DNA of 26,781 nt from a virus: IMG/VR virus record IMGVR_UViG_3300026509_000101, positions 1 through 26,781 of that record; one strand, 5' to 3'. Made by a program: the position numbers and the translations under genes. Shown in pieces: positions 1-19,252 of the stretch (position 1 is the first letter of the stretch; each line of letters opens with the position of its first letter). A model generated the notes under the pieces. The model was not told where the DNA came from. It did no database searches and was given only the letters and a program-made list of their open reading frames with translations.

Positions 1-703
1 TAGCGTTTAAGTCTTTAATCTGTTGGTTTAAATTTTTAATTGTTTCATCTTTTTGGGAAAGTTGATTTTGTAAGTTTTGATATTCTGATTTTAAAACATA
101 GTTATTTTCAACCTCTTTTTTTTCAATAAACTCTTTTTTTACAACTACCCTGTGCCACATTTCAACGCATACTTTTACACTTTCTTTATTGTTTAAATCG
201 ATACCAAGATAATAATCGCTACTTGATCCTGATCCTAAAATTTGTCTTGCTTGTCTAACAATTCTTTCTACATCTATTTCATTCGGGCAGGCAGTTGGAA
301 CAATTTCAGAATGTTTTTTAATATGTTGTCTATCGCAGGGGATTTTATAAAACTTACAAATATCAGCCACTAGCTTAGCTGATGTATTATATAAAGCATC
401 TGATGGAGTAATTCCCTTATACCACTCGTGTTCTATTCCAATAGACCTTTGATTTACATTATAGTTTCCGCAATGGTATGCGGTATAATACTCCTCCAAT
501 CCTTGATAAAGTTTTCCATCGTTTCCAATAATATAATGAGCAGAAACTTTTGTTCCTCTTGTTCCAAAGCGGTTTATAGCAGATTGAACCGTTCCAACGG
601 TTGAATGAATAACAATAGTATCAATAGGCAATCTACTTTCATCGTAGTTCCCGGTTGCTGTTGTAAATTCTATGTTTGGTAAATTTGTCTCTACTCTTCT
701 CAT
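1..703 (-). CDS. N-acetylmuramoyl-L-alanine amidase (Amidase_2/PGRP fold), 3' end outside window
   Basis: A reading frame opens with ATG at 703-701 and runs off the left edge after 234 codons without a stop. Residues 27-140 look like the Amidase_2 (T7 lysozyme/PGRP) family, zinc hydrolases that cut the bond between MurNAc and L-Ala in peptidoglycan. Visible marks are the strand and ligand IVIHST (His33), SAHYIIGNDGKLYQ (54-67), a GIEHE strand (89-93), and HSEIVPTACP (131-140), giving His131 and Cys139 as the remaining zinc ligands. Residues from about 195 on are Gln/Lys/Glu-rich and look coiled-coil. It is the last gene of the minus-strand series, after the giant polyvalent protein, so it could be an endolysin or a virion-associated lysin; the coiled-coil tail leaves both open. 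There is no clear ribosome binding site. The fold call is firm; the role in the cycle is inferred. Confidence 0.88.
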   Translation of the reverse strand, partial: MRRVETNLPNIEFTTATGNYDESRLPIDTIVIHSTVGTVQSAINRFGTRGTKVSAHYIIGNDGKLYQGLEEYYTAYHCGNYNVNQRSIGIEHEWYKGITPSDALYNTSAKLVADICKFYKIPCDRQHIKKHSEIVPTACPNEIDVERIVRQARQILGSGSSSDYYLGIDLNNKESVKVCVEMWHRVVVKKEFIEKKEVENNYVLKSEYQNLQNQLSQKDETIKNLNQQIKDLNA

Positions 704-813: not shown

Positions 814-3800
814 TTATTTTAATTGTCTTCTTAACTTTTTAATAACTTCACTACCAATTATTTTGTTTTTTCTTGCTATTTCTAAAATACTTTTAAATTC
901 TTCATTTGATAACTCTTTATTTGCCGACTTTAATATTTCAACTTTTTCATCATTTGTTTGAGAATAAATTAAACTATTTAAATATGGATTATCTTTTCCT
1001 TTAACAATTGCTACTCTAAATCTTTTAATAAGATTAGTTTTTTCTTGACTTGATGAGCCTTTTTCTAAAAACTCTTTTAATAACTTTCTTTCTAATTCTC
1101 TTCTTTTTTCAATCGTTGGATTTTTTTGATACTCTTTAACATAATCATTAATCCTATCTCTAATTTCCAAATACCTTTCTGCTTTTTTTTGTTCTATTAA
1201 TTTTTCACTCTTTGAAAGTTTTTCTCTTAATCCTTGATCTGAAACTTTAATCCATCTTCCAGCAATATTTGAAATTACTGGTAAAGATAAAAATTTTTCC
1301 AAAGCGGTTGGATTTTTAGGATTATAAGATGGCAATACTATTGCAAGTCCTTGATTTTTAACCAACCAATCTAAAAGAATAGGAAATGAACGACTAAACC
1401 CTGCTTTAAATTCTTTTTCCGGAATAATTGGTCTGTCTCTATAAAAATCATAAGGATTATTGCCAGATAGATAAGATATTAAAGCACCAAGTCCAATAAA
1501 TGATGGAGAAAGATTTGGTAATTGTCCAGCTCCAAATGAAAGAATTTCCATTATGCTTTTTACTATTCCATAATCTTTATTAATATTCATCGTCTTCCAA
1601 AATAATCCACCAATAAATCTTCCAGTCTCATCTTGAGGAATTCTAACATAGACAGATTTCCCATTTTCATCTAATCCAATTGGAATAATGTTATAGTTTG
1701 TTTTATCATATTCTGATATTCCGTTAATTATTTTTTTTAATCTATCGCCTAAATATCCTAAAGCCATTGCCATTATAATTAATTTTGGTAATATATTAAC
1801 CAAAAATGTTTTATACCAAAAAGATGAAGCGTTAGCTTTTCCTCTTTTACCAGTTGCTATATATAAATCTGTCTTTAAGCCTTCTTTTATAGCATTTGAA
1901 AATAAAAAAATTGAATTAGTTATTAGTGTTGCTCTTCCTTTTACTCTAAAAGCTGGAGAACCGACTGATGTTCTTATAAATTCTGCTAATTGTTCAGGTG
2001 GCATTTCGCCTTTTAAATTTACATATGCGGCTACTTTTGGTAAAGTTTCAATAAAATCGCCAACTTTCCTCACTGTTTCTAAAACATTAATTATTGGAGA
2101 CAATATCTTAAATTTCTTTTTTTTCGCAAATAATCCATATCCTTCTAAAATTCTTTCAATCTGTTGTTGATCGTTTGGTATTTCACCCGAAAAAACATCA
2201 TTATAAGATAAACCTAAAATATTAGCATTTTCCATTTCTCTTATTAACTCATCTCTTAAACCAAAAGCTTTTTTAAAGGCTGGCTTTACTGCTTTTATAT
2301 ATCCTTTTCCTAATTTATAAGCATCAATAATAGGAGACAACGGCACTTCGGCTAATGTTTTATGAGGATAGTTTTTCCAAGCACGATTCAAGTCTCTTAC
2401 AAAATTAAATGTTTGAAAACCAAGATTATATATTGTGAATATTGGTCTATAAAAATTGCTTTGAGAAATAGCTCTTGCGACATTACCAAGCATTTCTAAA
2501 GTAGAATTACTTGTCCAGTTTAAAGTCTCGGCTACATCTTTTGGCACATACCAACCCTGCGGTTTTCCGTTTTCTATTGTTATTACCAATCCTAAATTTT
2601 CATCTTTTGGCATCATTATATCTAAACTTTTTCCATTCCATCTTGTTTTTGCTTTTTCAATCTCATTGCTAAAATTTTCTCTTAAAAAGTTAATATTTAA
2701 TTTTTTAACTTTATTTCTTTTTATTGCTTTATAAGTTGAGATAAGTTTCATTACTGTTGCTGTTGCTGGATTTGATATTTCTTTTAAAGTTCCAACTTGA
2801 TGATAAACTCTTGGACTAATATATGTATCTAAATAATCTATTACTTGAAAAGTAGCATAAGCCGGGTTCATTTTCATTTCTTTTAATGTTTCTGGTGTAT
2901 AATATCCTTCTTTTTCGGCTAAATCAACAACTTTTTTAACTCCTTTTCTAAACAATTCTTTTGCTTCTTGAAGTTTTTGCCAGTCTTCAGCCGACATTTG
3001 TTCTTCCATTTTCTTTAAATTAAATGAAGCAGTATTTGGATCATAACCTAAAGGATTAGCAAGCTCGCCTCGTTCATAAATAACCCGTTCATAAAATAAT
3101 ATTTTTCCCAATTTATTCCAACCATCTTCTACTTCTCTTGCTTTGGAAAAAGCTGGCTGTAAATTATCTTCAATAAAGTTTTTAACTTCAGCATCCGAAT
3201 AAAGAAGTCCTTTTAAAGCATATTCTGGATTTAATTCTGGTGGGATTATTTTTCCTTCTTTTTGTAATTTATTTATTCTTTCAATAATTGGTCTGTTAAC
3301 ATCGTCAAATAAAATTTTTATTTGATAAACTAAATTTTTCTTTCTCATCTCTCTATCAACATATTTTGCTTTAAATTTTTCTTCTGCTTTGCTAAACATT
3401 TGGTTAATTTCCTCATCTCTTTTTTTAAATACCGCATCTTCTCCTTCATTTAATAAATTCCAAATCTCATTAAAGTTTTCCATCACTTCAGGTTTCCTAT
3501 CTAAATATTCAAAAAATCCTTCCCAAAATCTTGGGGCTTTTTCTTTTAATAAAGCTGGATCGTTAAATAAAACCGATATAGCATCAGCATATAATTCTGA
3601 TGATGAATAACGATATTTTGTATACTTTGGGTTGGCGTTTTCATCAAATGGTTTCCAAATTTGCGTTAATTTTTTTAATTCTTCTCTTATTACTCTATTG
3701 TTTAATTCTCCATAAAGATTTTTTAAATGTTTTTTAAGAGTAGCAATTCTACCAACTAAATTTCCTCTTGCCATTGTTTTGTCAGGTAGAAAGTCAGCCA

Positions 3801-6800
3801 AATGACCAAGTTCGTGGGCTAAAACTTTAGCGGTTAATTCCGGGTTTTTAAATATTTCATAACTTAATTTAATATCAAATGTTTTTGGATAAAAAGCGCC
3901 TAAAGCAGTCTTAAATCTTGAAGACAACTTAACTTCTTTACCTAATAAATTTTTAGCAATCCGAAGAATTTCTGGAAACTCAACCACTTTTATATCATTA
4001 ATAATTTTTTCTGGACTTTTTATATTGGAATAACCACCAACATCAGCAAATCCCGATGGGGCTTTTCTTGTATCTGTAGTAAACAAACTTCTTTTAACAA
4101 AAAACGTTTTGTTTTCTTCAGCTAACCTTTTAACTAAAGTGTCATAATCATTTTCTTTTGCGACTAAATTTATTCTTTCTTTTTTAGCGTTTTCAAGTTT
4201 TTGTTTAAATTCCTGTTCTTTTTGTTTAATTTCCTCTTCCTTTACTTTTATTTTTTCATCAAAATCTTTTATTTTTTTATCTATTTCATCTACATTAATA
4301 CCTTTTTTTCTTAAATCTTCTAACTCTTTATTTAATTCAGCTTTTGCCTCTGTTAATCTTTTACCCCAATAAATAACATCACTATCATTTTTATTTGCCA
4401 TTGCTTCTTGTTTCCATTTTTCAAAATCTTTTATATCTTTATTTAATTCATTAACTACGCCTAATTGTCTTCCAGCAAAAGCTCTTTCTGATTTTAAAAC
4501 CGCTAATTCTTTTTGAAGTTTTGACATCGCAAATTCTTTTTCTGCCTGAACTCTAATTACGGGATCTGTTATTAACTCTATCTTCATATTTTCAAAATCC
4601 AAATCACCAACCTCAACTTGTTGTCCGGTATAACTCCAAATATTCTTAATTCTTTTTTCTTTTGTTTCTAATTTCTGAAAGATAAAACTATCAACTGAAT
4701 TTTCAATTAATGGATAATGAATTCTTACTTTTGCCCATTGATTACCTTGTCTCCAAAGTCTTCCTTCTATCTGTTGAATATCAGTTGGATTCCACGGCAA
4801 ATGTAAATGGAATAAATCAGTTGTTTTTTCTTGTAAATTCATTCCAACTAAAATCGCTTCAGAGCCAATTAAAATCCTTGTTTGTCCTTTGTTAAATCTA
4901 TTCTGTATCTCATATTTTTCATCAATATCCATACCACCCGAAACAAATTCTATTTCACTCGGTTTAATATTATATTTTTTAACTAAATATTCTTTTAATA
5001 AAGGATAATATTCAACTCCACGAGGCATATAAATTATTTGATTAGCTTCTTTATTATCTTTGTAATTTTGAGCAACACTATCTAAAGCAAATTTAATTTT
5101 TGGTGAAAAATTAACAAAATTTTCATAAGTTAGTGGTGGAAGTTGTATATCCTTATCATTAGCAAATCTTGATAAATATGGTGATAGAGTAATATTTTGT
5201 AATTCAGTTATCGCAACAATTGTTCCACCTTTTTCTTTATCTTTAAAAAGTGGTTGTGCTTTTAAAATCATTTTTACTTGTTCTTTTGTTGGAGACAAAA
5301 TAACTTTTCGTTTATCTTTTATTGGTCTTTCTAATTCATTATCTCCTGTTTCAAAACTAATATATTCCGTAACTAACTTTTGTAATTGTCCTAAATTGGT
5401 AAAGTTTTCAATAACATCTTCTTCTCTTACTTCTTGATTGGCTTTTAAAACAAGCTTTGATTTTAAATCCATAAACATTGACATAAAATCATTAACATTT
5501 TTAAGCTTCATTTGTTCTAATTTCTTTTTACCAAATAAAGATAAAATAGAATAAATTTCAAGCGGATGATTGGAGAATGGAGTAGCTGACAATCCAAAAA
5601 CATTTCTTCCGTTATTATTGTTTAAAATATATTGAGAAATAAAATATGATTTTACTCCTCTTGATGAACTTGAACCTCTAACATTTTTATAATCATTTGA
5701 ACCTCTTCTTTCAACTTTTGCTCCTGTGAAGATATTTTTAAAGTTATGAACCTCATCAAAAACCACTCCATCAAATCCTAAATCCTCAAAAAATATCTCT
5801 CCTGTTGTTCCTTTTAAAGCCTTTCCACCATATTCTTCTGCTGTTGCCTCAAGTTTAGCTCTTTGTCTTGATGTTATTTTTGGCGGCTCTAAAACATCTT
5901 GAAGTCCAGTCATTAGTTTATTATAAGTTTCCATTCTAAAACCAAGTCTTGACATACCTTCATAACTCATTAAAGAGATTGTCCCATCTTCAATTTTAAG
6001 ATCGGATAAATTGCCTTTAAACTTTTTGCCTAAATTCATTAAAGAATTTATTTTTACATTTGGTATTAAATCTTGAATTTCATTAAGCCATTGATAATAA
6101 ACTGAATTTGGAACAATAATAAGCGGTCTTTTTACCCAACCTCTATACATCATTTCATTAATTGATAAAATAGCGGTCATTGTTTTTCCAAGTCCTACCT
6201 CATAAGCCAAAAGTCCAACTCCTTTTGTTGTTAAAAAAGATATACCTTCTTTTTGTAATTCTCTCAACTTTAATGGTTTCCCTTTAAAAGTAGCGTTAAC
6301 TTGTGAAAGAAGCGGTATTTTTTTATAATCAGGTTTAACATACGCATTAAACAAACGATTATAACTATCCTCTATAATTTTTTTATTCTCATCAGACAAC
6401 TCATTTAAAAAACGATTAAACAATTTATCTCCAATCTCTCGTCTTCTTCTTCTTATTTCAATATTTCTTATTTTATCACCGGTATTAACTATTTTTCCGT
6501 TTATATATTCTATAACTTCCCATTCTGAAGAATTTTCAAAAGCTTCTCTTGGTAAATCAGATAACCATTTTTTAAATTCAGTAATAATATTAACTAATTC
6601 TTCATTTCCATCGTCTTTTTTTATTTTTATTTTTAATTGTTTAACAAACGATTCATCATTTGGTTTTAATTTAATTTCATTTATTTTTTTCGGTTTTGGC
6701 AATACTTCTAAAAGTCCTTTTTTTTGTTTTTCATATTGATCTTTATTTAATAAATCTTTATTTTTTTCTAATCTATCAAGTTTTTCATAAATATTTCCAG

Positions 6801-9800
6801 AATAATACAAAACATTTGGATAAAATTTATTTACTAAACCAAGTCCGGTATCAGATTCAACCAATGGATCAACTGCAATCTCATCTGATTTAAATTCTTT
6901 TAAGCTTGTAATATCCTTTCCTAAAGTTTTTAGAACATAATTTACATCAAGTTCTCCACCCGGTAAAACATTTTTCCATAATTCTTTTTCTTTATCTGAC
7001 AATTCATTTAAATATATGGTTTTATCTTTTTTTGTGCTTACTATAATAACATCTTTTTTTGCTTTTCTTATAATTTCTTTTGGTTGTTCTACCCGTGATA
7101 CATTGTCAATTTTTCCTTCTTTTAATGGCTCTTCTGGTTTTTCTGGTGTTCTATCTATCTTTGGTAATTCTTTTATCGGTTCGCCACTTAATATACTTTC
7201 AAATCTTTTTTTTAAATCTTCTAAAGTTCCTTTAACAACATCTTCACCAAATCTACCTGCTCTTTTTTTAACTTCACCTAAAATATTGCTTGGAAAATGA
7301 GTAAAGTAATTTCCATCGGATAATAATAAAGGATCGGTTTTCCCGCCTTTTTTAAAAATAACAATATCCGTTCCTATATCAGTAGTTCCAAAAATACCAC
7401 GAGGAAGTCTAAAAGCCTCAATTAAAGTAGCGTTTTCTCCTATTTTTTCTTTAGCATAATTTACGCTATTGTCCAAAAAGCTTGATGGCATAACATAAGC
7501 CAATATTCCATTTTTTTCAAGTAAATCTATTCCTCTTTTTAAAAAGTATTCCTCATATTTTCTAATCTTTGGTTCTTCACCAAGGCCTAAATAAAATCCT
7601 CTATGGTCGCCATAAGGTGGATTTCCGACAATAATATCAAATGTTTTCCCTTTAATATCTAACTTATTTCCTCTTTCATCAATAAATATACTTTCAAACG
7701 GTTTATTTTGAACATAAGCTTTTGGATAAAGGATTTTGGTAATTTTTGCTGATATTGGATTTATCTCATAAGCCTCAAAACCAAAGCCATCTTTAGTTTC
7801 TTTTATAAATCTTCCAGTTCCAACCGCTGGCTCAAGTAAAGAATAATCTTTTGGTATCTCATCAATGTTTAAAATCTTTTTTATTCTTTTCCAAATAAAA
7901 TCAACTACTTCTTGTGGAGTATAATATTCATCCAAAACCCCTCTTTCTTCAACTCCTGCTTTTGCTAATCCACCGCTTCCCGTATATTGTTCAAGAAGTT
8001 TTTTATCTTCAGAAGTATAATTTTCTGGATTATCTCCTTTTTCTTTAAGAAGTGCTTCTACTTTAGCATTTATTTGCTGTTGTTGTAATGGTGTTATCCG
8101 TGTTGGAGGTCGCTCTCCAGAGATTGAAGAGCGTTTATTATACTCCCTCCCGGCTGACTTGCCAGCCTCATCACTTGTTCTTTCAATGTTTCCGGATTGC
8201 TTTTCGCCCACCGATATAGGACTGGGAAGTTCTTTTTGTCCAGTTTCTCGCCCAGAAACATTATTTCGTTCTTTGCCATATAATTCTATTTTAGTATCTT
8301 TTTCTATTTTGTCAACTTTTATTTCTTTATTAGCTTCGTTATAAATTTCAGTAAGAAGTTCTATCATAGCATCTCTTCTTGCCCATTGTTTTATTACTGT
8401 TTCTTTTAATTTTCTTGCTTCTGGTGTCATTCGATTTTCTACAGCTTTACTAAAAGCTTCTTCTGTTATATATTTTTGACGCTCAGAAAGTTCTTGATAA
8501 ATTGATTTAGTAATTTCTTCTGGTCTTGTTTTAAATTGCTCAATAAACTCCTCTGCGCTTTTATATTTTCTTGCTTCTTTAATAAAAGGTTCAAGTTCGA
8601 GAGGTATTTTTGTTTTAACTTGTTCTGCTATTTGTTCTTTTGGTTTTTCTGGTGGTTTAACTTCTGATATTTCTTTATTAGCAAAGTTATAAATGTCGAT
8701 TAGTTTGGAAGGACGAGTTAAAATATCTGGAACATCTCTTTTATGATATGACGCATAACTTCTTATTTGTCTGCCAACTTCTTCCAATCCATATTTTTTA
8801 ATATCTTTTAAAAAAGATGGATATAATCCCTTCCTTTCTGATTCTGTTAGTTTTCTCTCTACTCCAAATTGTCTTATATATGCTTCAAACAATTTTTCTT
8901 TTACAAATTCTTCCGCGCTTTTATAATTCTTTGCTTCTTCTACTAATGATTGAAATTCTGGAGATATTTCTGGTTTTGTTTTTTCTAATACTTTTATTTT
9001 TTCCTCTGATGGTTTAACTTCAGGTTTTGTTTCTGGTTTTATTTGTGTTTTTGGTTCAACTCCATACTGCTTTATTACATCTTCTAAAATCTTATTTAAT
9101 GGAGTATCCCAATAACGATCAGTATATGGTCGCTCGGTAATTCTTACTAAAAATTCATCTCTAAATTCTTGCCATTTTTCGCTTACATTAGTATACCCAT
9201 CTCCAATTTCACCTAAATCTAATCCCATTTCTTTTGCTTTTTGTAAAGCCATTCTTCCAAGTTTCATAGCAAATTCAGTTTGTTTCTCTTCAAGTGTTTG
9301 TTCAGCTTCTGATATTTTTTGCTGAAGATTTTCAATTTCTTTATTTATTTCTTTTTTCTTGTCAATTGCTTCTTTACTTCTATCACTTTTTATTTTCTTT
9401 AATTCATTTTCTAATTGTTTTATTTTTTCCTGTAATGGTGCTTTAAATTTATTAAGCTTTTCATTAGCATTATTCCATCTTTCATCAAAATCTGATGGTG
9501 TTTGATAAAACGCTTCTTCTACTTTATCAAGACTATATTCGCTACTAACATCAAATTTCTTAACCTCTTCCCCAGTTGTTTTTGGAAGTTGTTCTGGAGG
9601 TTTTTTCAAAGGTTGTTCAGGAGTAATTGCTGGTTTAACTTCTAAAGAAGATGGGGAAGAAGTTTTTAATGTATTAAATATCTCTTCAAATGTGTATAAC
9701 CCATCAATTTTATCTTTACCGCGATATATAACTGGAACTTCTTTATTTAAGCTTCTAAAAGCCTCAAGTCTATGAGAGCCATCAACTGTTATAAACTTAT

Positions 9801-11445
9801 CACCCTCTTTTTGTATTTCAATCGGTTCTACTTTTTTACCTTCCTTTATCATTTTGATATAATCAGCCACTCCTTTTTCATCAACTGAATCACGAGCAAT
9901 TATTTTATCTGGCGATAATTTACCAATTTGATTAGTTTCTTGAGCTGAAAATAAAGCATCAGCAAAATCTTTTGCCGATACATAATCTTTAGCTTTGTTT
10001 AATTCAGGAATATCTTCAGCTAATTTTTTTATTTGTCTACTTTGTATTTCTTTTGTAATAACCGGTGGTATTTTCGGTTTTTCTTCGGTAGTTGTTGGTT
10101 TTTTTGGTTGAATAACTATTATATCTTGATTTTTATTTTCCGCCTCCAACGCCCCTTTTATAAGTTTTTTTCCTTCTTCTGTCTTATCATAACCATTTTT
10201 AATAACTTCATTTATTATTTCCTGTGGTGTATATCTTTCTTTTTTAAAGATAGATGGGTCAAATTTTTTTGATTTTCCAGTCAAAAATTCATAAGCAGAA
10301 TTTAAAGCTATTTGTTCTTTTGTTGAACCAGTAATATCTGGATGAACTTTTTTGGAAGCTGAACGATAAGCTTCATTTATTTTTTCAATCGGATCACCTA
10401 ATTTAACTTTAATATCAGAATATTCATTTAAAACTTTTAAAGCCTCAACTCTTAAAATCTTATCAGTTTGTCTTCCTTTTACAAAATCAGACACTCTTCC
10501 TTTCATTCTTCCCCAACCATCTAAAATTCCCAAAACCATACCGGAAACAAAAGCATCTTCATTTGAAGCACCACTTAATTTAGCCAATCCAAATCCCAAA
10601 CCAAAAGAAGCCGGGATTGAATATCTTGTTTTTTCAACAAATCCCAAAGCAGTAAATGGAACTGAAACAACTACATCTTCAGCAAATTTTTTAAACCTAT
10701 CTTTTAAATCTGGATCTAACTGTCCATAAATTGAAAACGCCCCAATATTTTTTAAAAGTGGTAAGGTATAACGAGCTAAACGAGGATAACTTTTAATAAA
10801 GTTAGTGATTAAAGTAGATCCTTCTGCTAATCCAAAAAGTTTTTTTCCTATATTTTGAATAGTAATTGCTGTTCCAACCGCCTCACTTACACCAGCAATA
10901 ATTTTATCAGCTAAATCAGGATTAACTTTTTCTTTTGGTTTAATAATTCCACCAGTTAAACCTTTAATAAAACTATTTTTTGATGTTTGAAATTTATCAT
11001 CAAATTTTCCAATTAAACTTTGTTCATATTGTTTTTGTAATGTTTTTATATCTTGTTTACCTCCTTCTGGTTCTGGTGAGTATACTGGTTTAGGTAAAAT
11101 AGGAAATAAATCATAAATACTAATACTTTCTACCCCTTGAGTTAATCCTTGTCTTACTTTACCTAATTCTTCTTTAACTGGTTTTGGGACAAATGAAAAA
11201 ATAACATCTTTTATTTTAATAACATTCTCTTTTATTTTATTAAACCCTTCAAAAAAAGATGGAGTAGTTACTACTTGTTTTGGTTGAGATATTGTTAATG
11301 ATTGTTTAGGTTTTGATGCTTCATAATTTAAATATGTTTCTGCCGTATTTAAATCCCATACGCTACCTTCTGGAGAGGGTGATTTTGGTGATGAAATTTT
11401 TATTCCTGATTGTTTTTCTGCTGTGTCTAAAGTCCATACTGCCAT
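814..11445 (-). CDS. 3543-aa polyvalent protein: J-domain, ParB-like, N6-adenine MTase, SNF2 helicase, metallopeptidase
   Basis: Domains in order: residues 1-110 low complexity with two VWxLxTAE motifs; 190-320 Gly/Ala-rich and hydrophobic; 331-390 J-domain-like with HPD at 368-370; 508-575 ParB/sulfiredoxin-like with DGSHR at 555-559; 650-730 coiled coil; two KSAEEF repeats at 842 and 962; 1174-1365 N6-adenine methyltransferase with motif I EPAVGTGRF (1205-1213) and NPPY (1275-1278); 1728-2240 SNF2-type helicase with EVGLGKT (1749-1755), DEVH (1897-1900), SATP (1953-1956) and EGRLWRQG (2227-2234); 2300-2430 coiled coil; 2541-2625 zinc peptidase with HELGH (2544-2548) and possible third ligand Glu2617; 2690-3440 polyvalent-type C-terminus with a hydrophobic segment near 3213-3232. 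It contains no cysteine. Phage P1 DarB, with methyltransferase and helicase domains, is packaged and protects injected DNA from restriction. A similar delivered anti-defence role is inferred. It starts 1 bp after the 388-aa gene. Confidence 0.93.
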   Translation of the reverse strand: MAVWTLDTAEKQSGIKISSPKSPSPEGSVWDLNTAETYLNYEASKPKQSLTISQPKQVVTTPSFFEGFNKIKENVIKIKDVIFSFVPKPVKEELGKVRQGLTQGVESISIYDLFPILPKPVYSPEPEGGKQDIKTLQKQYEQSLIGKFDDKFQTSKNSFIKGLTGGIIKPKEKVNPDLADKIIAGVSEAVGTAITIQNIGKKLFGLAEGSTLITNFIKSYPRLARYTLPLLKNIGAFSIYGQLDPDLKDRFKKFAEDVVVSVPFTALGFVEKTRYSIPASFGLGFGLAKLSGASNEDAFVSGMVLGILDGWGRMKGRVSDFVKGRQTDKILRVEALKVLNEYSDIKVKLGDPIEKINEAYRSASKKVHPDITGSTKEQIALNSAYEFLTGKSKKFDPSIFKKERYTPQEIINEVIKNGYDKTEEGKKLIKGALEAENKNQDIIVIQPKKPTTTEEKPKIPPVITKEIQSRQIKKLAEDIPELNKAKDYVSAKDFADALFSAQETNQIGKLSPDKIIARDSVDEKGVADYIKMIKEGKKVEPIEIQKEGDKFITVDGSHRLEAFRSLNKEVPVIYRGKDKIDGLYTFEEIFNTLKTSSPSSLEVKPAITPEQPLKKPPEQLPKTTGEEVKKFDVSSEYSLDKVEEAFYQTPSDFDERWNNANEKLNKFKAPLQEKIKQLENELKKIKSDRSKEAIDKKKEINKEIENLQQKISEAEQTLEEKQTEFAMKLGRMALQKAKEMGLDLGEIGDGYTNVSEKWQEFRDEFLVRITERPYTDRYWDTPLNKILEDVIKQYGVEPKTQIKPETKPEVKPSEEKIKVLEKTKPEISPEFQSLVEEAKNYKSAEEFVKEKLFEAYIRQFGVERKLTESERKGLYPSFLKDIKKYGLEEVGRQIRSYASYHKRDVPDILTRPSKLIDIYNFANKEISEVKPPEKPKEQIAEQVKTKIPLELEPFIKEARKYKSAEEFIEQFKTRPEEITKSIYQELSERQKYITEEAFSKAVENRMTPEARKLKETVIKQWARRDAMIELLTEIYNEANKEIKVDKIEKDTKIELYGKERNNVSGRETGQKELPSPISVGEKQSGNIERTSDEAGKSAGREYNKRSSISGERPPTRITPLQQQQINAKVEALLKEKGDNPENYTSEDKKLLEQYTGSGGLAKAGVEERGVLDEYYTPQEVVDFIWKRIKKILNIDEIPKDYSLLEPAVGTGRFIKETKDGFGFEAYEINPISAKITKILYPKAYVQNKPFESIFIDERGNKLDIKGKTFDIIVGNPPYGDHRGFYLGLGEEPKIRKYEEYFLKRGIDLLEKNGILAYVMPSSFLDNSVNYAKEKIGENATLIEAFRLPRGIFGTTDIGTDIVIFKKGGKTDPLLLSDGNYFTHFPSNILGEVKKRAGRFGEDVVKGTLEDLKKRFESILSGEPIKELPKIDRTPEKPEEPLKEGKIDNVSRVEQPKEIIRKAKKDVIIVSTKKDKTIYLNELSDKEKELWKNVLPGGELDVNYVLKTLGKDITSLKEFKSDEIAVDPLVESDTGLGLVNKFYPNVLYYSGNIYEKLDRLEKNKDLLNKDQYEKQKKGLLEVLPKPKKINEIKLKPNDESFVKQLKIKIKKDDGNEELVNIITEFKKWLSDLPREAFENSSEWEVIEYINGKIVNTGDKIRNIEIRRRRREIGDKLFNRFLNELSDENKKIIEDSYNRLFNAYVKPDYKKIPLLSQVNATFKGKPLKLRELQKEGISFLTTKGVGLLAYEVGLGKTMTAILSINEMMYRGWVKRPLIIVPNSVYYQWLNEIQDLIPNVKINSLMNLGKKFKGNLSDLKIEDGTISLMSYEGMSRLGFRMETYNKLMTGLQDVLEPPKITSRQRAKLEATAEEYGGKALKGTTGEIFFEDLGFDGVVFDEVHNFKNIFTGAKVERRGSNDYKNVRGSSSSRGVKSYFISQYILNNNNGRNVFGLSATPFSNHPLEIYSILSLFGKKKLEQMKLKNVNDFMSMFMDLKSKLVLKANQEVREEDVIENFTNLGQLQKLVTEYISFETGDNELERPIKDKRKVILSPTKEQVKMILKAQPLFKDKEKGGTIVAITELQNITLSPYLSRFANDKDIQLPPLTYENFVNFSPKIKFALDSVAQNYKDNKEANQIIYMPRGVEYYPLLKEYLVKKYNIKPSEIEFVSGGMDIDEKYEIQNRFNKGQTRILIGSEAILVGMNLQEKTTDLFHLHLPWNPTDIQQIEGRLWRQGNQWAKVRIHYPLIENSVDSFIFQKLETKEKRIKNIWSYTGQQVEVGDLDFENMKIELITDPVIRVQAEKEFAMSKLQKELAVLKSERAFAGRQLGVVNELNKDIKDFEKWKQEAMANKNDSDVIYWGKRLTEAKAELNKELEDLRKKGINVDEIDKKIKDFDEKIKVKEEEIKQKEQEFKQKLENAKKERINLVAKENDYDTLVKRLAEENKTFFVKRSLFTTDTRKAPSGFADVGGYSNIKSPEKIINDIKVVEFPEILRIAKNLLGKEVKLSSRFKTALGAFYPKTFDIKLSYEIFKNPELTAKVLAHELGHLADFLPDKTMARGNLVGRIATLKKHLKNLYGELNNRVIREELKKLTQIWKPFDENANPKYTKYRYSSSELYADAISVLFNDPALLKEKAPRFWEGFFEYLDRKPEVMENFNEIWNLLNEGEDAVFKKRDEEINQMFSKAEEKFKAKYVDREMRKKNLVYQIKILFDDVNRPIIERINKLQKEGKIIPPELNPEYALKGLLYSDAEVKNFIEDNLQPAFSKAREVEDGWNKLGKILFYERVIYERGELANPLGYDPNTASFNLKKMEEQMSAEDWQKLQEAKELFRKGVKKVVDLAEKEGYYTPETLKEMKMNPAYATFQVIDYLDTYISPRVYHQVGTLKEISNPATATVMKLISTYKAIKRNKVKKLNINFLRENFSNEIEKAKTRWNGKSLDIMMPKDENLGLVITIENGKPQGWYVPKDVAETLNWTSNSTLEMLGNVARAISQSNFYRPIFTIYNLGFQTFNFVRDLNRAWKNYPHKTLAEVPLSPIIDAYKLGKGYIKAVKPAFKKAFGLRDELIREMENANILGLSYNDVFSGEIPNDQQQIERILEGYGLFAKKKKFKILSPIINVLETVRKVGDFIETLPKVAAYVNLKGEMPPEQLAEFIRTSVGSPAFRVKGRATLITNSIFLFSNAIKEGLKTDLYIATGKRGKANASSFWYKTFLVNILPKLIIMAMALGYLGDRLKKIINGISEYDKTNYNIIPIGLDENGKSVYVRIPQDETGRFIGGLFWKTMNINKDYGIVKSIMEILSFGAGQLPNLSPSFIGLGALISYLSGNNPYDFYRDRPIIPEKEFKAGFSRSFPILLDWLVKNQGLAIVLPSYNPKNPTALEKFLSLPVISNIAGRWIKVSDQGLREKLSKSEKLIEQKKAERYLEIRDRINDYVKEYQKNPTIEKRRELERKLLKEFLEKGSSSQEKTNLIKRFRVAIVKGKDNPYLNSLIYSQTNDEKVEILKSANKELSNEEFKSILEIARKNKIIGSEVIKKLRRQLK

Positions 11446-11446: not shown

Positions 11447-12613
11447 TTATTTTGGTTTCCAACTTGAATAACCCAAATCTTTCATTGCTTGAGTAATATA
11501 AGCTGCCGCTGTATTTTTATCTAAACCAGTTTTTTCCATCAATCTGTTTACTGCTAATAAATACTCTTGAGCCGATAATCTTTTATCGCCACTCCAATCT
11601 TCTTTATCAAGTTTTTGTAATTTTCCGTTAATTGTTCTATATTGTTCATCAATTACTCTTATAATTTCTCTTGCGTTTCCTGTAATATTTCTTTGTTGAG
11701 TAGTCGTTAATCCTCCAGTTCCAGAACCTTTACTTTTAGCAACTACTTGTTTGCTGATAATCTCTCCAGTGTCAACATTAACAACATAAAAACCTTGATT
11801 AGTTCCATCATCAAATTCTTTCACAACTGTTTTAAGATTTTTTGCTTTGTTTAATTTAATAGCCGATTCAATCATAGAAGAAGAAATACCAGTCATTCTT
11901 GTAATATTAGCTATATCCTCACCCGTTGCTCCATCAAGCATTCCTGATTGGAGTAAGAAATTTAATTGTTCTCTTGCATCTCGTGCCTGTTGACTATTAA
12001 TATCAAATTGTTTCAATTGAATCTTAAGTTGTGTTTCTATGTCAGCTTTCTTTTTGGCTATTTCATCTCTAATAGGAGCAATAGCATTTTGAAAATCAGT
12101 TGTTAATTTTTGAATTCTACCAACTCTGTTTGCTTCGGATAAAAATGGATTGTCATTAATTTTTGATACTGCTTGATTATAAGCTTGCGTTTTTGATTTT
12201 AAATCATTTTCTAATTGTTCTATTCCTAAATCTTTATACAACTTATCGTATAATCCTTTTAAATCAATAGTTGGCGTTTGCTGTTGTCCTAAAATACTAA
12301 AAGCAGATGATGATGGTATTGATGGTGATGATGGTGTTGGAGTAGATGGTGGTGGATTATATGTGGCGATTGGTTTTGGCTGTGGTTGTTGTTTTAATTT
12401 TTGAAGATAGTCCCAGTTAGCTGGATTAGTCTGTTGAACAACTTCTCTTGAAACTTCTTTTCCTGCTCCTATCTGATTGCTTTGTGGGTGAATTACTCCC
12501 GGATCGGAAAAAGTTCCGTTCCAATATTGTCTTCCTTGATACCAACCACCTTGCTTAAACCCACCTTTTGGCGGTTTTATGCCAAGCTGTTCTGGTGTAT
12601 ATATTCCTGCCAT
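11447..12613 (-). CDS. 388-aa Pro-rich coiled-coil virion protein (possible ejection protein)
   Basis: I do not recognise a named family. The N-terminus (1-75) is rich in Gly, Gln and aromatic residues. Residues about 76-110 are a Pro/Ser/Thr linker. Residues about 115-215 are strongly helical and charged and look coiled-coil. The C-terminal third contains a small beta stretch (GFYVVNVDTGEIIS) followed by helices. It has no cysteine. It lies between the head-tail adaptor (3 bp upstream) and the giant polyvalent protein (1 bp downstream) and shares their promoter at 13287-13316, so an internal or ejected virion protein working with the giant protein is the most likely role. Position and composition are seen; the role is inferred. 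Confidence 0.8.
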   Translation of the reverse strand: MAGIYTPEQLGIKPPKGGFKQGGWYQGRQYWNGTFSDPGVIHPQSNQIGAGKEVSREVVQQTNPANWDYLQKLKQQPQPKPIATYNPPPSTPTPSSPSIPSSSAFSILGQQQTPTIDLKGLYDKLYKDLGIEQLENDLKSKTQAYNQAVSKINDNPFLSEANRVGRIQKLTTDFQNAIAPIRDEIAKKKADIETQLKIQLKQFDINSQQARDAREQLNFLLQSGMLDGATGEDIANITRMTGISSSMIESAIKLNKAKNLKTVVKEFDDGTNQGFYVVNVDTGEIISKQVVAKSKGSGTGGLTTTQQRNITGNAREIIRVIDEQYRTINGKLQKLDKEDWSGDKRLSAQEYLLAVNRLMEKTGLDKNTAAAYITQAMKDLGYSSWKPK

Positions 12614-12616
12614 AAA

Positions 12617-13276
12617 TTATTTAAAAAAATCATTAACTTCAAAGAAAGTTGTTGTTTTTTTATATTTATTTTGATTTTTCTGAATTTTATCCCAAGCAAA
12701 AGCTAAAATTTGTTTTGCTTCTAAACTTCTAAATTGACCCGGTTGTTCATCTTCACCTTTTTTCTTTAATATAGCAACGGCTTCTAAAACTATTGCCTCA
12801 TTACAATCTGGCATTGAATAAGAAAAAATAGTAGTATCATTATTATTAACTAAAGTATCTACTGTTTTTAATCCCCAAATTGTTATGTTATTATTTCCGT
12901 TTGTTGTTGGTGTTGGATAAATAAAAAACCTTTTCCATTGTGTTGACCATAGTCTATCTGCTCCTGATGGTATACCATTGGCTTTTTCGTAAAGATAGTC
13001 TTTAAAAACCAGCGGATCGCCATAATCTTCACCATCAACCTCAAGTTTCCAAGCTGAATCGGGTTGCCAGTTGTTTGGATAATCGTAATACTCTTGATTA
13101 GCAATAGTTGATGTGGTTAAAGCATCTTCAAGTTGAGGCCAAGGATATAAAGCACCGCATTTGATATATGCTCTATTTATAGCAGATTTAATAGTAGTTT
13201 CATCAAAAAGACTACTGGTTGCGGGTATTGATAAATCGCTTTTTACTGCATTTATTAATTCAGAAAAAGTATTCAT
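12617..13276 (-). CDS. head-tail adaptor / connector-like protein (219 aa)
   Basis: The protein has the pattern of podovirus adaptor (P22 gp4-like / T7 gp11-like) proteins: an N-terminal helical segment with a conserved-looking INRAYIKCGALYPWPQLED region (34-52), then beta strands around YYDYPNNWQ and the aromatic segment WKRFFIYPTP (about 113-122), and a helical C-terminus. Such proteins sit under the portal and join head to tail. It opens the left-hand operon: a promoter at 13287-13316 puts the predicted transcription start only about 4 nt before the ATG, and the 388-aa gene follows after 3 bp. Its distance from the portal and capsid genes, beyond the fiber cassette, is unusual. The family call rests on pattern and context, not on a diagnostic motif. 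Confidence 0.66.
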   Translation of the reverse strand: MNTFSELINAVKSDLSIPATSSLFDETTIKSAINRAYIKCGALYPWPQLEDALTTSTIANQEYYDYPNNWQPDSAWKLEVDGEDYGDPLVFKDYLYEKANGIPSGADRLWSTQWKRFFIYPTPTTNGNNNITIWGLKTVDTLVNNNDTTIFSYSMPDCNEAIVLEAVAILKKKGEDEQPGQFRSLEAKQILAFAWDKIQKNQNKYKKTTTFFEVNDFFK

Positions 13277-13286
13277 AATAATTTAA

Positions 13287-13316
13287 ATATTAGAAGATAA
13301 AGATATTTATTCGCAA
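13287..13316 (-). promoter_or_regulatory. promoter, shared family (TTGCGA-18-TAATAT)
   Basis: On the minus strand TTGCGA (13316-13311) is followed by an 18-bp spacer that starts ATAAATAT and then by TAATAT (13292-13287). The predicted start is near 13280, about 4 nt before the adaptor ATG. The same -35, spacer start and spacing recur before the fiber and portal genes. Confidence 0.72.
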
Positions 13317-13370
13317 GTTATTTTTTTACTAAAAGATTGGAGGCAATTTTAACCTTATACTTATAAACTT

Positions 13371-14087
13371 TTATCGAATTTTTCTTAAATCATTATAAGA
13401 AACAACTTTACCCCATTTTTTTTTAAATTGGTTAATTCCACTTTCTAAAAAAGTTAAAGAACCTAAATTTAAATATTTGAAACCTTCTTCTTTTAATTCT
13501 TTTATTAAATAATAAATTATGATATAACCAGCATTATCATATTTTTCATTATGATATAAAATTTTCACTTCAAACATATTTTTAAAATAAGACAAATAAG
13601 ATAAGGCGGCTAAATCGTTGTTTTTTTTATAATATAAAGAATAAACTCTAACATTTTCTTTACCTTTTAAACAATTCTCACACATTTCACTTAAAATTAA
13701 CCTATCAGAAGGATAAAGATAATCAAAAACTATTTCTTCTTTTTTTATTTTATAAACTCTTTTAAACTCATAATTATCTTTTTCTTTTAAATGTCGCTTT
13801 AAATCAGAATTTATTATAAAATTTTCTAAATTTACTATTACTTTTTTTGTCGTAAAATCAATTTTTTTTTCTTCAACTACTTTTTTTTCTACTAACTTAT
13901 TATTTTTAATTTCAAATTTGTCTATTCCTTTAATTAAAACCTTTTCGGCTAAATCATTATCAATATCTAAATAATTAAAATTTTTATTTTTAGTTGATAT
14001 TTTAGCTTTATTTTTTATTTTATTTTCTTTGCTAAATATTACTGAATATCCTACGATGTTATTATTTTCATCAAAAAATATTCTCAT
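13371..14087 (-). CDS. GNAT / FemAB-like acyltransferase in the tail cassette (238 aa)
   Basis: The C-terminal half (about 120-238) resembles the GNAT fold used by FemAB/FemX-type and related acyltransferases: beta strands around VRVYSLYY and DLAALSYLSYF, a helix in NAGYIIIYYLIKELKEEGF (about 185-203), then YLNLGS (205-210) and GINQFKKKWG (217-226), which matches the late 'G...FK..wG' signature of this group. The N-terminal 100 residues are Lys/Asn-rich and unrecognised, apart from an opening (MRIFFDENNNIVGY) that looks phage-like. The start overlaps the stop of the preceding tail paralog (ATGA). Enzymes of this type transfer aminoacyl or acyl groups; the substrate here is unknown. It could modify the neighbouring fiber proteins or the host envelope. 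The fold is moderately supported; the function is open. Confidence 0.62.
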   Translation of the reverse strand: MRIFFDENNNIVGYSVIFSKENKIKNKAKISTKNKNFNYLDIDNDLAEKVLIKGIDKFEIKNNKLVEKKVVEEKKIDFTTKKVIVNLENFIINSDLKRHLKEKDNYEFKRVYKIKKEEIVFDYLYPSDRLILSEMCENCLKGKENVRVYSLYYKKNNDLAALSYLSYFKNMFEVKILYHNEKYDNAGYIIIYYLIKELKEEGFKYLNLGSLTFLESGINQFKKKWGKVVSYNDLRKIR

Positions 14088-14524
14088 TTTAATTTTTGTG
14101 TAAAAACATAAATTTTATAATTAAAAGTTAAATTAGAAAATATATTAAAATTTTGTCCTTGACGCTCATAACAATAAGCACTTAAATAGAGCCTTACATA
14201 ATTAGGATAAATATAATAAGTAAAAAATAATGATTGAATATAAAATTTACCACAATCAACACATTCGCTATAATCCAAAGGTAAAATAGAATATAAATTA
14301 TTACAATCTTTTACTAAAACTTTAACTATTGGATAATAACCTAAATTATGATAAACATTAACATAAGTTTCTCTATCTGGGTCAGAAGCGTATAAAGTTA
14401 TACTTCCTGAAAAAATTCCATATAAAGATAAACTTTCATATTTGCTCCAAAAAATATAATCTTTTGGATTGTTAGAATTTATATTAGCCGTTGGTTTTGC
14501 TATTTTTATTCCATAATTTCCCAT
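14084..14524 (-). CDS. tail-tip/receptor-binding paralog 3 (146 aa)
   Basis: This is the third of three tandem paralogs that begin M-x-NYG-(I/V)-KI. I chose the ATG at 14524-14522, giving MGNYGIKIAKP, because it aligns with the starts of both neighbours and lies 1 bp after the preceding stop; an open frame extends upstream to 14638 inside the neighbour and is probably unused. A YHNLGYYP motif sits in the middle, as in the siblings. The second half has several Cys and Tyr residues (DYSECVDCGKF, AYCYERQ). The protein looks all-beta and secreted or virion-exposed. A host-recognition role is inferred from the fiber context and the duplication. The stop (TGA) overlaps the ATG of the acyltransferase gene. 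Confidence 0.66.
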   Translation of the reverse strand: MGNYGIKIAKPTANINSNNPKDYIFWSKYESLSLYGIFSGSITLYASDPDRETYVNVYHNLGYYPIVKVLVKDCNNLYSILPLDYSECVDCGKFYIQSLFFTYYIYPNYVRLYLSAYCYERQGQNFNIFSNLTFNYKIYVFTQKLK

Positions 14525-14525
14525 T

Positions 14526-14921
14526 TTAATCAAAAGGGTCATAATATATAATGACAAAATATGGAATAGAATTTCCCTCGGCATAACCACACAGTCCCGA
14601 TACATAAATATATAAATTGTTATTATTAACATAAACATTCACAATTTCATACATACCTACTCCACAATAATTACGATAAGGAATTTGTCTATACCTTGTA
14701 GAAGAATTTGTTGGTTTCATATAAGCATCAAACAATGGGGTATAGCCCAATCCGTGATATATAGTTTTAGTTGTCCCTTTTGAATCAGAATAAACAAAGG
14801 AACTTTTTTCAATTAATTTTATTTTTAATAATGGATAAGAAGAATGGTAAATATAATCACCCAAAGATGGAGAATTAACACTATAACCACTTTTAGCTAT
14901 TTTTACACCATAATTTCCCAT
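14526..14921 (-). CDS. tail-tip/receptor-binding paralog 2 (131 aa)
   Basis: Middle member of the tandem family. It starts MGNYGVKIAKSGYSV and has the family's TIYHGLGYTP motif near residues 52-61. The rest is Tyr/Asn-rich predicted beta structure, with cysteines in YCGVGMY and GLCGYAEG. The preceding paralog ends 2 bp upstream and the next begins 1 bp downstream, so the three are co-translated. The short beta domain with a 'H-(N/G)-LGY-x-P' motif recalls small phage tail-fiber or adhesin domains. I cannot name the family with certainty. Confidence 0.68.
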   Translation of the reverse strand: MGNYGVKIAKSGYSVNSPSLGDYIYHSSYPLLKIKLIEKSSFVYSDSKGTTKTIYHGLGYTPLFDAYMKPTNSSTRYRQIPYRNYCGVGMYEIVNVYVNNNNLYIYVSGLCGYAEGNSIPYFVIIYYDPFD

Positions 14922-14923
14922 AA

Positions 14924-15232
14924 TTAACCCTCATAAAATATAACAAAATATATATTTCTATTATAACAACTAATATAAATAGAATTTTCGTTTACTCCAA
15001 AACTTGCTGGGGCTAAAGAACCATCCGCTCTTTCAACCCAAGCCATTGCCGCTGGCACATAGCCTAAATTATGATAATAAGTATAACCAGAACTACAATA
15101 AACACCTGTTTTTATAAAAATTTTATGACTTTCAACACTGGATAAAATTGTTAAATATCGTGGCGGAGCGTTTTTAACATCATATTGAGATGGCGCGTTT
15201 GGTTTTAATATTTTAATTCCATAATTTGGCAT
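14924..15232 (-). CDS. tail-tip/receptor-binding paralog 1 (102 aa)
   Basis: First and shortest member of the tandem family. It starts MPNYGIKILKPNAPSQYDV and carries YTYYHNLGYVPAAMAWVERAD in the middle (about residues 51-71), followed by beta-type sequence ending in IYFVIFYEG. It lies 2 bp downstream of the 171-aa fiber/tip gene. Because all three siblings share the N-terminus and the HNLGY motif while the remainder differs, they probably arose by duplication and divergence of one surface-recognition module. The role is inferred from the neighbourhood. Confidence 0.68.
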   Translation of the reverse strand: MPNYGIKILKPNAPSQYDVKNAPPRYLTILSSVESHKIFIKTGVYCSSGYTYYHNLGYVPAAMAWVERADGSLAPASFGVNENSIYISCYNRNIYFVIFYEG

Positions 15233-15234
15233 AA

Positions 15235-15750
15235 TTAAAATCCGTTAAGCTGATAACCTATTAAAATTATATCTCTTGAACCATCATTTATTATTATTCT
15301 ATTATTTGCTCCATCTAACCTAACATAAGACCCACCAACTCCGCTTCCAACATCAACAGTTCCAGTAACTATACTTGCTGAAGTTAACTGACCTGAAAAA
15401 GTAGCATTGCCTGTATCTCCATCAATTGAAAAAGTATTTACTCCGCTTGAATTTTTAGCAATAATTCCGTCTGGAGAAATAAGAATTTCACCACTTACTG
15501 AATTTTGATATTTTCCTATTCTTATTGCTCCACTGTCCGTAAATTGATATTCTTTCATTATCTTTTGAGAAGAAGTATTTAAAGACTTTGTAATAATATC
15601 TCTTATTGGTGGCATTCCAGTATCTTTTATTTCTTCTGGTTTTAAAATCTGCGATGACTGACTACCTGATGAATAATTAAAATTTTGACCAGAAAAAGGA
15701 AAAGGTTGTTCTTGAATTTCTTCCGGATAAAAAACCTTTTCATCTGCCAT
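15235..15750 (-). CDS. tail fiber/tip structural protein (171 aa)
   Basis: The first 60 residues are Pro/Gln/Ser-rich and probably disordered or used for attachment. Residues about 65-125 carry short beta repeats (GAIRIGKYQNSVSGEILIS; DGDTGNATFSGQLTSASIVTG) of the kind found in phage tail-fiber and tail-tip proteins, where 'sIdgdtGnatF.G.l.asSI' marks a trimeric beta region. The protein ends in a hydrophobic strand (IILIGYQLNGF). It lies 5 bp after the nozzle-like gene and 2 bp before the three paralogs. A structural role in the tail tip is likely; the exact part cannot be fixed. Confidence 0.72.
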   Translation of the reverse strand: MADEKVFYPEEIQEQPFPFSGQNFNYSSGSQSSQILKPEEIKDTGMPPIRDIITKSLNTSSQKIMKEYQFTDSGAIRIGKYQNSVSGEILISPDGIIAKNSSGVNTFSIDGDTGNATFSGQLTSASIVTGTVDVGSGVGGSYVRLDGANNRIIINDGSRDIILIGYQLNGF

Positions 15751-15755
15751 AAGAT

Positions 15756-17129
15756 TTAATCAAAATAAATTTTAATATCATAAACTTCTGGTGATACATT
15801 ACCATTTGGATTTAAAACCACTCGTGGTTCAAATATCTCACCTTCTTCTTGAATTGAAAAATGAGCTTTTTTACCACCAGTTTTATTATATGAGTTAGCC
15901 CCATCAATTGTTTTTGCTTGAACAAAATTACCATTTTTATCAATTCTAAACCAAAATTCAACCGAACAACCAGAAGGTAAAGGATACATTGTCAACTCCG
16001 CAAATTTCCACTGAACAATATTACTTATACCTTTTGGCTTTATTTTTAAATCCAATCCTTCATATACACCAATTGCTTTGTTTGATGGATCAACTGATTT
16101 TACTCCATAAGTTAAACCAGATTTATAGCTTGCTATTAAAGTTCCATTAAAATTAACAATCGCTCCAATTTCATCAGCCTCTAAACTATAATCTAAATTT
16201 AAAACAAAAGGTCTATTTTTATTTAATCTTCCAATACTATAAATTCCATTATATCCCAATGCCCCTCCATAAACGCCAAAATAAGCTAAATTTCCAACTT
16301 CCTGTTTGTCAATCCAAGACAAAGCCGTCTCTTCCCATTCAAAAATCTGCGGTTGTTCATAATAATTACAAACTCCACCGGGATTAGTTTTTCCACCACC
16401 GGGAAACCTTTTTATCGGAATAGTATTTGACATATCAGCTAAATATATATCTCCATCGTTGCCAACCTGAATTAAAGGAAATTCAGCATCAATTTGAGAA
16501 TTTATACCCCTGTCTTCTTCATTTACTTTATAACACCCAATGATAGTTCTACCGTTTCTTTCTATAATTGTTTTTGCGATATTTCCCGGAATTAAAGCTA
16601 AAGCCTCATTTGTCCAGCTTCCATCATAACCAACCATAGCCAACTTATCATAATTTGCTATTTTTGTAGCCCCAGCAATTTGTTTCATTGTGTGCCATTT
16701 AGCCGAAGTTAAGTTAGAAGCAAGCGTTGAAACATCAGACCAGTTAGATAATCCAGGTATTGGTTTTCTTTTAATTTTTGTATTATTACACCAACCTAAA
16801 TATTTAGTCCCATTACTTTGAACCAATTCTTCTGCTCCTTTTATTTCTCCATCTGGATCAGTGTAAACCACTGACCAAACCCCGTTTGTTCTTTTGTAAA
16901 TTTTACCACTACTTCCAAAACCATACAAATTTCCATCAGAACATTTAACAAACCATCTTATCAAATCAGTAAATACTCCGCTTCCTTCCTCTCTTAAAGC
17001 CTGTTGACAATAGAGACTGTCAGTAATCCTTCTTATATTTAAATTTTTTCCAAACTTAAAAGCTCCCGGAATTCCTTTATCCTCATAATCTGAAATTCCG
17101 CCTGAAAATTTGTTAATATGATATATCAT
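15756..17129 (-). CDS. tail nozzle / propeller-like tail protein (457 aa)
   Basis: I take the ATG at 17129-17127 (MIYHINKFSGGISDYEDKG) as the start. The longer frame to 17168 needs a TTG start and overlaps the preceding gene, and the conserved-looking FSGGISDY opening is typical of this kind of protein. Repeated strands such as SDGNLYGFGSSGKIYKR and GNDGDIYLAD, with regularly spaced Trp and Gly, suggest a beta-propeller, as in podovirus tail nozzle or needle-base proteins. The C-terminus (about residues 365-457) is a separate beta domain with WKFAELTMYPLPSG. It contains several cysteines, unlike the head proteins. It lies 26 bp after the 282-aa gene. A tail-tube or nozzle role is inferred from fold impression and position. 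Confidence 0.68.
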   Translation of the reverse strand: MIYHINKFSGGISDYEDKGIPGAFKFGKNLNIRRITDSLYCQQALREEGSGVFTDLIRWFVKCSDGNLYGFGSSGKIYKRTNGVWSVVYTDPDGEIKGAEELVQSNGTKYLGWCNNTKIKRKPIPGLSNWSDVSTLASNLTSAKWHTMKQIAGATKIANYDKLAMVGYDGSWTNEALALIPGNIAKTIIERNGRTIIGCYKVNEEDRGINSQIDAEFPLIQVGNDGDIYLADMSNTIPIKRFPGGGKTNPGGVCNYYEQPQIFEWEETALSWIDKQEVGNLAYFGVYGGALGYNGIYSIGRLNKNRPFVLNLDYSLEADEIGAIVNFNGTLIASYKSGLTYGVKSVDPSNKAIGVYEGLDLKIKPKGISNIVQWKFAELTMYPLPSGCSVEFWFRIDKNGNFVQAKTIDGANSYNKTGGKKAHFSIQEEGEIFEPRVVLNPNGNVSPEVYDIKIYFD

Positions 17130-17155
17130 AAAAAAATGATAAACTATTAATCTAT

Positions 17156-18004: not shown

Positions 18005-18034
18005 AATTCATATTTTTTTATTTATAAAACTTAA

Positions 18035-18148: not shown

Positions 18149-18157
18149 AAATAAAAT

Positions 18158-19243: not shown

Positions 19244-19252
19244 ATAAAATAA

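What the first reader, a model, noticed from the sequence alone, without database searches (positions are those of the whole stretch)
814..11445. Giant polyvalent protein joining chaperone, ParB-like, methyltransferase, helicase and protease domains
One 3543-aa reading frame carries HPD of a J-domain (368-370), DGSHR of a ParB/sulfiredoxin fold (555-559), NPPY of an N6-adenine methyltransferase (1275-1278), a full set of SNF2 helicase motifs (1749-2234) and HELGH of a metallopeptidase (2544-2548). Known: polyvalent proteins are delivered with phage or plasmid DNA and counter host defences, and P1 DarB has a methyltransferase plus helicase and protects against type I restriction. Inference: this protein enters the cell with the DNA, and the peptidase may either release its domains or cut host proteins. 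The J-domain at the front may recruit host DnaK to pull or refold the chain.
Basis: partly seen in the sequence, partly recalled or inferred. Interest (0 to 1): 0.78.

Follow-up and report, generated by a model that had tools for sequence, protein, structure and literature searches.

The report
Giant phage cargo protein, hidden gene
A phage makes one giant 3,543-residue protein, probably carried in its particle, that strings anti-defence enzymes onto a conserved carrier end, and a small second gene is hidden in another reading frame of the same DNA wherever this enzyme block occurs.

Summary
In detail: a 3543-aa minus-strand ORF (814-11445) carries all five motifs at the stated residues. Methyltransferase and SNF2 domains pass Pfam cut-offs. 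The ParB fold is supported by a structure model. The J domain is sub-threshold but supported by several independent tests. The C-terminal ~1000 aa (HELGH peptidase plus an LPD38-like region) is a carrier shared by well over 100 phage proteins of about 1500-4400 aa with varying cargo. The gene lies last in the structural block, where T7 has gp16. It is therefore a DarB-like polyvalent protein, most likely packaged and ejected; this is inferred from homologues, not shown here.

New points: (1) A 96%-identical sister phage has lost exactly the methyltransferase-helicase cassette (1274 codons, in frame) and gained another insert, so the cassette is swappable. (2) J domains with an intact HPD occur only here and in the sister; two relatives keep the fold without HPD. 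(3) A 61-aa ORF (X, 8094-8279) lies in the +1 frame just upstream of the methyltransferase. X is conserved in 11 of 12 such cassettes by HMM (the twelfth marginal), some with an apparently different C-terminus. Substitutions show selection acting on X's frame. The function of X is unknown.

The parts
814..11445 (-). giant polyvalent protein, 3543 aa
10258..10467 (-). J domain, residues 327-396, HPD at 368-370
   Evidence: Pfam DnaJ 3e-5, sub-cut-off; E. coli CbpA phmmer E 8e-4 to the sister copy; 0 nonsynonymous changes; helix II-HPD-helix III in a low-confidence model
9721..9933 (-). ParB/sulfiredoxin-fold domain, residues 505-575, DGSHR at 555-559
8316..8323 (-). site where the sister phage L081 carries a ~190-aa insert not present here (between residues 1043 and 1044)
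8288..8315 (-). sigma-70-like promoter TTGACA-16-TAAAAT, 8 nt before X; joint-highest consensus match (11/12) of the giant-gene region and the only one on the coding strand
   Evidence: the number of such sites in the region is not above shuffles
8094..8279 (-). X: 61-aa overlapping gene in the +1 frame of the giant gene
4239..8060 (-). MTase-SNF2 cassette, 1274 codons, absent in frame from the sister phage
7186..8085 (-). LPD36-like (GSGG 1156-1159), TP motif and N6-adenine MTase (NPPY 1275-1278), residues 1121-1420
4546..6378 (-). SNF2 helicase-like ATPase, residues 1690-2300
3526..3948 (-). zincin-like metallopeptidase, residues 2500-2640 (HELGHLAD 2544, SSELYAD 2615)
814..3525 (-). LPD38-like C-terminal carrier region, residues 2641-3543, one strongly hydrophobic segment at 3214-3232
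11447..12613 (-). conserved gene next to the giant gene (388 aa), homologues in 8 carrier-family loci
2..703 (-). amidase endolysin, just downstream

Best explanation
This is a tailed-phage polyvalent protein built as carrier plus cargo. The C-terminal third (zincin peptidase plus LPD38-like region) is the conserved carrier that probably places the protein in the virion as an internal, ejected protein. N-terminal to it sit exchangeable cargo domains: a J domain, a ParB-fold domain and a DarB-like adenine methyltransferase-SNF2 dyad. On infection the chain probably enters with the DNA, and the dyad travels along and methylates incoming DNA to protect it from restriction. The dyad comes with a small overlapping gene, X, in its +1 frame, which probably makes a separate accessory protein. 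Shown here: domain identities, carrier conservation, cassette loss in a sister, selection on X's frame and its linkage to the dyad. Inferred: packaging, ejection, methylation, any action of the peptidase or J domain, and translation of X.
For: Domains. DarB homology. Carrier: 177 viral loci encode a relative of the C-term alignment, HExGH nearly universal, model matches LPD38 proteins in BFVD at best E 1e-39. Cargo differs between members: GGDEF, primase, RadC, ddrB-ParB, strawberry-notch helicase. Position after portal, capsid and tail genes; in Pelagibacter phage Baldr the homologue lies between tail tubular/internal-protein-like genes and tail fibre, where T7 has gp16. Cassette loss. Published virion proteomics of a DarB-like podovirus giant (PMC9144972) and of P1 DarB (PMC9024508). 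X.
Against: No proteomics or methylation data exist for this phage. The window ends inside the endolysin gene, so the rest of the genome is unseen. LPD38 was not matched by sequence (Pfam), only by fold. No capsid-targeting sequence was identified. The J-domain model has low confidence (pLDDT about 40).
Confidence: 0.75

Rival explanations
1. The giant protein is made late and stays in the producing cell, where it methylates new phage DNA and helps assembly; it is not injected.
For: It is encoded in the late block, and methylating progeny DNA before packaging would also protect it.
Against: The carrier/LPD38 type is filed as phage-type polyvalent by Iyer et al.; the DarB homologues of P1 and JC1 were found in virions; the carrier is kept where the dyad is lost, so it has a role of its own.
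Confidence: 0.15
2. X is not a gene: its +1-frame conservation reflects a DNA or RNA element, or a +1 ribosomal frameshift that ends the giant early.
For: X lacks a clear Shine-Dalgarno sequence, and its ORF length alone is not unusual for this linker (533 of 2000 synonymous shuffles reach 61 aa).
Against: Third-position bias in X's frame (2/1/13; Fisher 3e-6); 39-62% aa identity in X's frame while the giant frame is near background in the distant pairs tested; an ATG shortly after an in-frame stop in most copies and a common C-terminal end; most other genes of this phage also lack a Shine-Dalgarno sequence.
Confidence: 0.13
3. The J domain is only a structural helical module and does not work with host DnaK.
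For: Two family members keep a J-like fold at the same place without HPD (L107, L113).
Against: HPD is intact here, with 0 nonsynonymous changes in 70 codons.
Confidence: 0.4
4. The sister's missing cassette, or the giant ORF itself, is an assembly artefact.
For: Both are metagenome contigs.
Against: The same cassette stands in frame at the same place in independent contigs (L087, L111, L189); the sister junction is clean and in frame and the sister also has its own insert.
Confidence: 0.03

Closest known systems
DarB-like giant virion proteins of Bcep22-like podoviruses (JC1 gp69, 4515 aa; PMC9144972)
   Same: podovirus giant protein with methyltransferase and helicase, encoded after structural genes; found in the virion by mass spectrometry
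   Different: carrier C-terminus not detectably related by tblastn; no J domain described; nested X not tested in JC1 itself
Phage P1 DarB
   Same: adenine MTase plus SNF2 helicase, homologous in three collinear blocks; defence against type I restriction is known for P1
   Different: DarB is 2255 aa with no J, ParB or carrier domain in the chain; its separate helper Ulx is unrelated to X
Polyvalent proteins of Iyer et al. 2017 (PMC5512222)
   Same: MTase-SNF2 dyad with LPD36 GxGG and TP motif, zincin with D three residues after HEXXH, LPD38-type end, late-gene context
   Different: DnaJ and J domain are not mentioned in that paper; no overlapping gene mentioned
Leptospira phage LE1 gp15 (NC_048892)
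   Same: closest annotated dyad among phages, about 31% over 1304 columns
   Different: different ends; X not detected there
Pelagibacter phage EXVC032P Baldr giant (WDQ27601.1)
   Same: C-terminal carrier at 26-31% identity with HELGH and the same gene position
   Different: no MTase-SNF2; N-terminus has a segment that looks lytic-transglycosylase-like by eye (no Pfam hit)

Membership tests
Polyvalent proteins (phage type) | several unrelated conflict-type domains in one chain | tested here: met
Polyvalent proteins (phage type) | encoded among virion genes | tested here: met
Polyvalent proteins (phage type) | zincin with HEXXH, downstream glutamate, and D three residues after the motif | tested here: met
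   HELGHLAD and SSELYAD conserved across A3, compared with PMC5512222
Polyvalent proteins (phage type) | protein present in the virion and injected | not testable with these tools
   needs proteomics
DarB-like MTase-SNF2 dyad | LPD36 GxG[GAS] and TP motif before NPP[YF], SNF2 domain after it | tested here: met
   GSGG 1156, YYTP 1174, NPPY 1275, SNF2 1690-2300
DarB-like MTase-SNF2 dyad | protects DNA against type I restriction | not testable with these tools
   known for P1 DarB only
LPD38 | match to the Pfam LPD model | tested here: not met
   no Pfam hit in residues 2883-3543 at E<=10
LPD38 | fold similarity to proteins named LPD38 | tested here: met
   61 BFVD hits below 1e-3, several named LPD38
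J-domain proteins | HPD between helices II and III | tested here: met
   sequence, helix placement in a low-confidence model
J-domain proteins | score over the Pfam cut-off | tested here: not met
   24.4 of 27.8 bits
DdrB-like ParB | match to PF18763 (ddrB-ParB) | tested here: not met
   only general ParB/Srx matches

The most novel reading that the evidence does not exclude
X is a real, separately translated small protein, overprinted in the +1 frame of the dyad's upstream linker, possibly with its own promoter and near-leaderless start. It is an obligate partner of this clade of DarB-like methyltransferase-helicase modules and moves with them between giant proteins because it is physically encoded inside them.
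Probability: 0.75. Interest if true: 0.7.

Novelty: new variant of a known kind. Interest (0 to 1): 0.62.

Why it matters
Giant ejected phage proteins are a poorly understood route for delivering enzymes into bacteria. A family of well over 100 proteins sharing one carrier end, with a natural sister pair that differs by exactly one cargo cassette (plus one insert), makes the carrier-cargo idea directly testable. The overlapping gene suggests that DarB-like anti-restriction modules need, or carry, a small partner missed by annotation, much as P1 DarB is aided by the separately encoded Ulx.

Tried and rejected
Resemblance by eye of the sister's 190-aa insert to Baldr: not supported by phmmer, no relative found. 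X as a relative of P1 Ulx: no similarity. X in annotated phages or plasmids: none at significant E. X in P1 DarB or LE1, or in L102, L129 and L134: no hit. C-terminus against solved structures: no significant match by sequence or fold, only weak zincin-type hits with E above 0.3. An internal in-frame start after X: none seen in the linkers of the window, L087 or L186 (read by eye). A conserved -10 box as a general feature of X: present in the closer copies, absent from five of the distant ones, so only suggestive. Pfam LPD1 search of the record was uninformative. TerL relatives at 61-67% that were searched whole do not carry this giant, so it is exchanged between phages.

Full report
OBSERVATION. 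The window is a whole IMG/VR virus record of 26781 bases, with nearly all long ORFs on the minus strand: TerL, portal, scaffold, major capsid, tail genes, the giant ORF and an amidase endolysin cut by the window end.

DOMAINS. Residues 1121-1420 form an adenine methyltransferase with an LPD36-like GSGG motif, a TP motif and NPPY. Residues 1690-2300 form an SNF2 ATPase. Both are homologous to P1 DarB and, more closely, to Leptospira phage LE1 gp15. Residues 505-575 fold as ParB/sulfiredoxin in a confident part of an AlphaFold model (pLDDT about 75-84), with PDB matches of probability 1.0. Residues 327-396 are a J domain: the Pfam score is below cut-off, but NCBIfam DnaJ (0.011), E. coli CbpA against the sister copy (8e-4), the helix-HPD-helix order (low confidence) and J-like relatives agree. 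Residues 2500-2640 hold the zincin with HELGHLAD and a downstream SSELYAD, invariant glutamate included.

SELECTION. Against the 96%-identical sister L081 (IMGVR_UViG_3300031509_000005), the J domain has 5 synonymous and 0 nonsynonymous changes, ParB 13 and 1, the peptidase omega 0.11, and linkers 0.35-0.40. The counts are small, but the assigned domains are the constrained parts.

CARRIER AND CARGO. The C-terminal ~1000 aa aligns with 177 viral loci (80 kept) and with contigs of Gemmatimonadales, Elusimicrobia and other MAGs. Full ORFs are about 1500-4400 aa, nearly all with HExGH. The AlphaFold model of this end (mean pLDDT 75) matches viral proteins named LPD38 (61 hits below 1e-3, best 1e-39). 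Cargo differs: MTase-SNF2 (L087, L111, L102), ParB (L088), primase and ParB (L090), RadC with ddrB-ParB (L094), strawberry-notch helicase (L092, L095), diguanylate cyclase GGDEF (L093, L134). In Pelagibacter phage Baldr the homologue stands between tail-tube/internal-protein-like genes and the tail fibre, where T7 has gp16 (the T7 order is established knowledge). A gene of about 370-450 aa precedes the giant in the relatives examined, and tail gene 15756-17168 has homologues in 16 family loci.

NATURAL CASSETTE LOSS. The sister's gene has 2453 codons. Window bases 4239-8060 (1274 codons) are missing in frame, with a 3-bp AAG microhomology at the junction, and a ~190-aa insert sits between residues 1043 and 1044. 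L107 and L124, whose portals are 64% and 49% identical to the window's, have giants of 1631 and 2353 aa without the dyad. So the dyad is cargo and not needed for the carrier's own role. Direction (loss in the sister rather than gain here) is inferred from the dyad's presence at the same place in more distant relatives, and from the sister keeping X.

J DOMAIN. J-like folds also occur at the same place in L113 (2.9e-6 with a model that did not include it) and L107 (0.003), both without HPD; Pfam gives DnaJ 0.015 and 0.013. Iyer et al. do not mention DnaJ or a J domain. Recruitment of DnaK is therefore possible but unproven.

OVERLAPPING GENE X. In the linker before the methyltransferase, the +1 frame holds a 61-aa ATG ORF at 8094-8279, the longest ATG ORF in the +1 frame of the whole gene (next 39). 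Window against sister: 58/61 residues identical in X's frame against 47/61 in the giant's; base differences by X codon position 2/1/13. This is opposite to the rest of the gene (Fisher p 3e-6). Homologues at 39-62% stand in the same +1 frame of other giants while the giant frame is near background in the pairs tested. A separate scan with the dyad alignment found 11 dyads. X lies directly upstream of the MTase in 10 of them by HMM (E below 1e-6), and the eleventh, L201, is marginal (0.39, then 0.017). With the window this is 11 of 12. Some of these giants lack the HExGH motif altogether (L200, L201, L204, L205), and L186's C-terminus looks different by eye, so X follows the dyad and not the carrier. 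In L196 no ATG was seen at the start of X. In the window, TTGACA-16-TAAAAT stands 8 nt before X's ATG and is the only 11/12 promoter-like match on the coding strand. TA[TA]AAT also precedes X in the closer copies but not in the distant ones. Promoter-like sites as a whole are not above shuffles, so the promoter is only suggestive. Most genes of this phage lack a Shine-Dalgarno sequence, so its absence before X says little. X has no match in Pfam, PHROGs, annotated phages or plasmids.

MECHANISM (inferred). The carrier takes the chain into the capsid and out with the DNA. Published support is the virion presence of JC1 gp69 and P1 DarB. The dyad then modifies incoming DNA as proposed for DarB. 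X may assist the dyad as Ulx assists DarB in P1, although they are not homologous.

VERDICT. The giant is a new variant of a known kind; the overlapping gene tied to the dyad is the most novel part.

Noticed in passing
window 8094-8279 (-): 61-aa overlapping gene X in the +1 frame, conserved with the MTase-SNF2 cassette (see report)
   Followed up: yes
L093:6965-13033 and L134:1646-12925: carrier-family giants with a diguanylate cyclase GGDEF domain (Pfam 2e-22 with motif RQGGDEF in L093; 2e-14 in L134), suggesting delivery of a second-messenger enzyme
   Followed up: partly
L091, residue 1469 of the giant: peptidase motif changed to HELGQ, a likely inactive copy of the otherwise nearly invariant zincin motif
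   Followed up: no
window 2-703 against L081:13384-14421: the sister has a different N-terminal catalytic domain on its endolysin-like protein while the C-terminal tail stays about 81% identical: a second cassette swap
   Followed up: no
L081:8968-9545: ~190-aa insert in the sister's giant with no detectable relatives
   Followed up: partly
window 11447-26368: most genes lack a Shine-Dalgarno sequence and have A/T-rich upstream regions, which may hint at the host group
   Followed up: no
window 14084-15232 (-): three neighbouring small ORFs (14924-15232, 14526-14921, 14084-14638) share a PNYGIKI/GNYGIKI stretch and a YYHNLGY-like motif, probably diverged duplicate tail proteins
   Followed up: no
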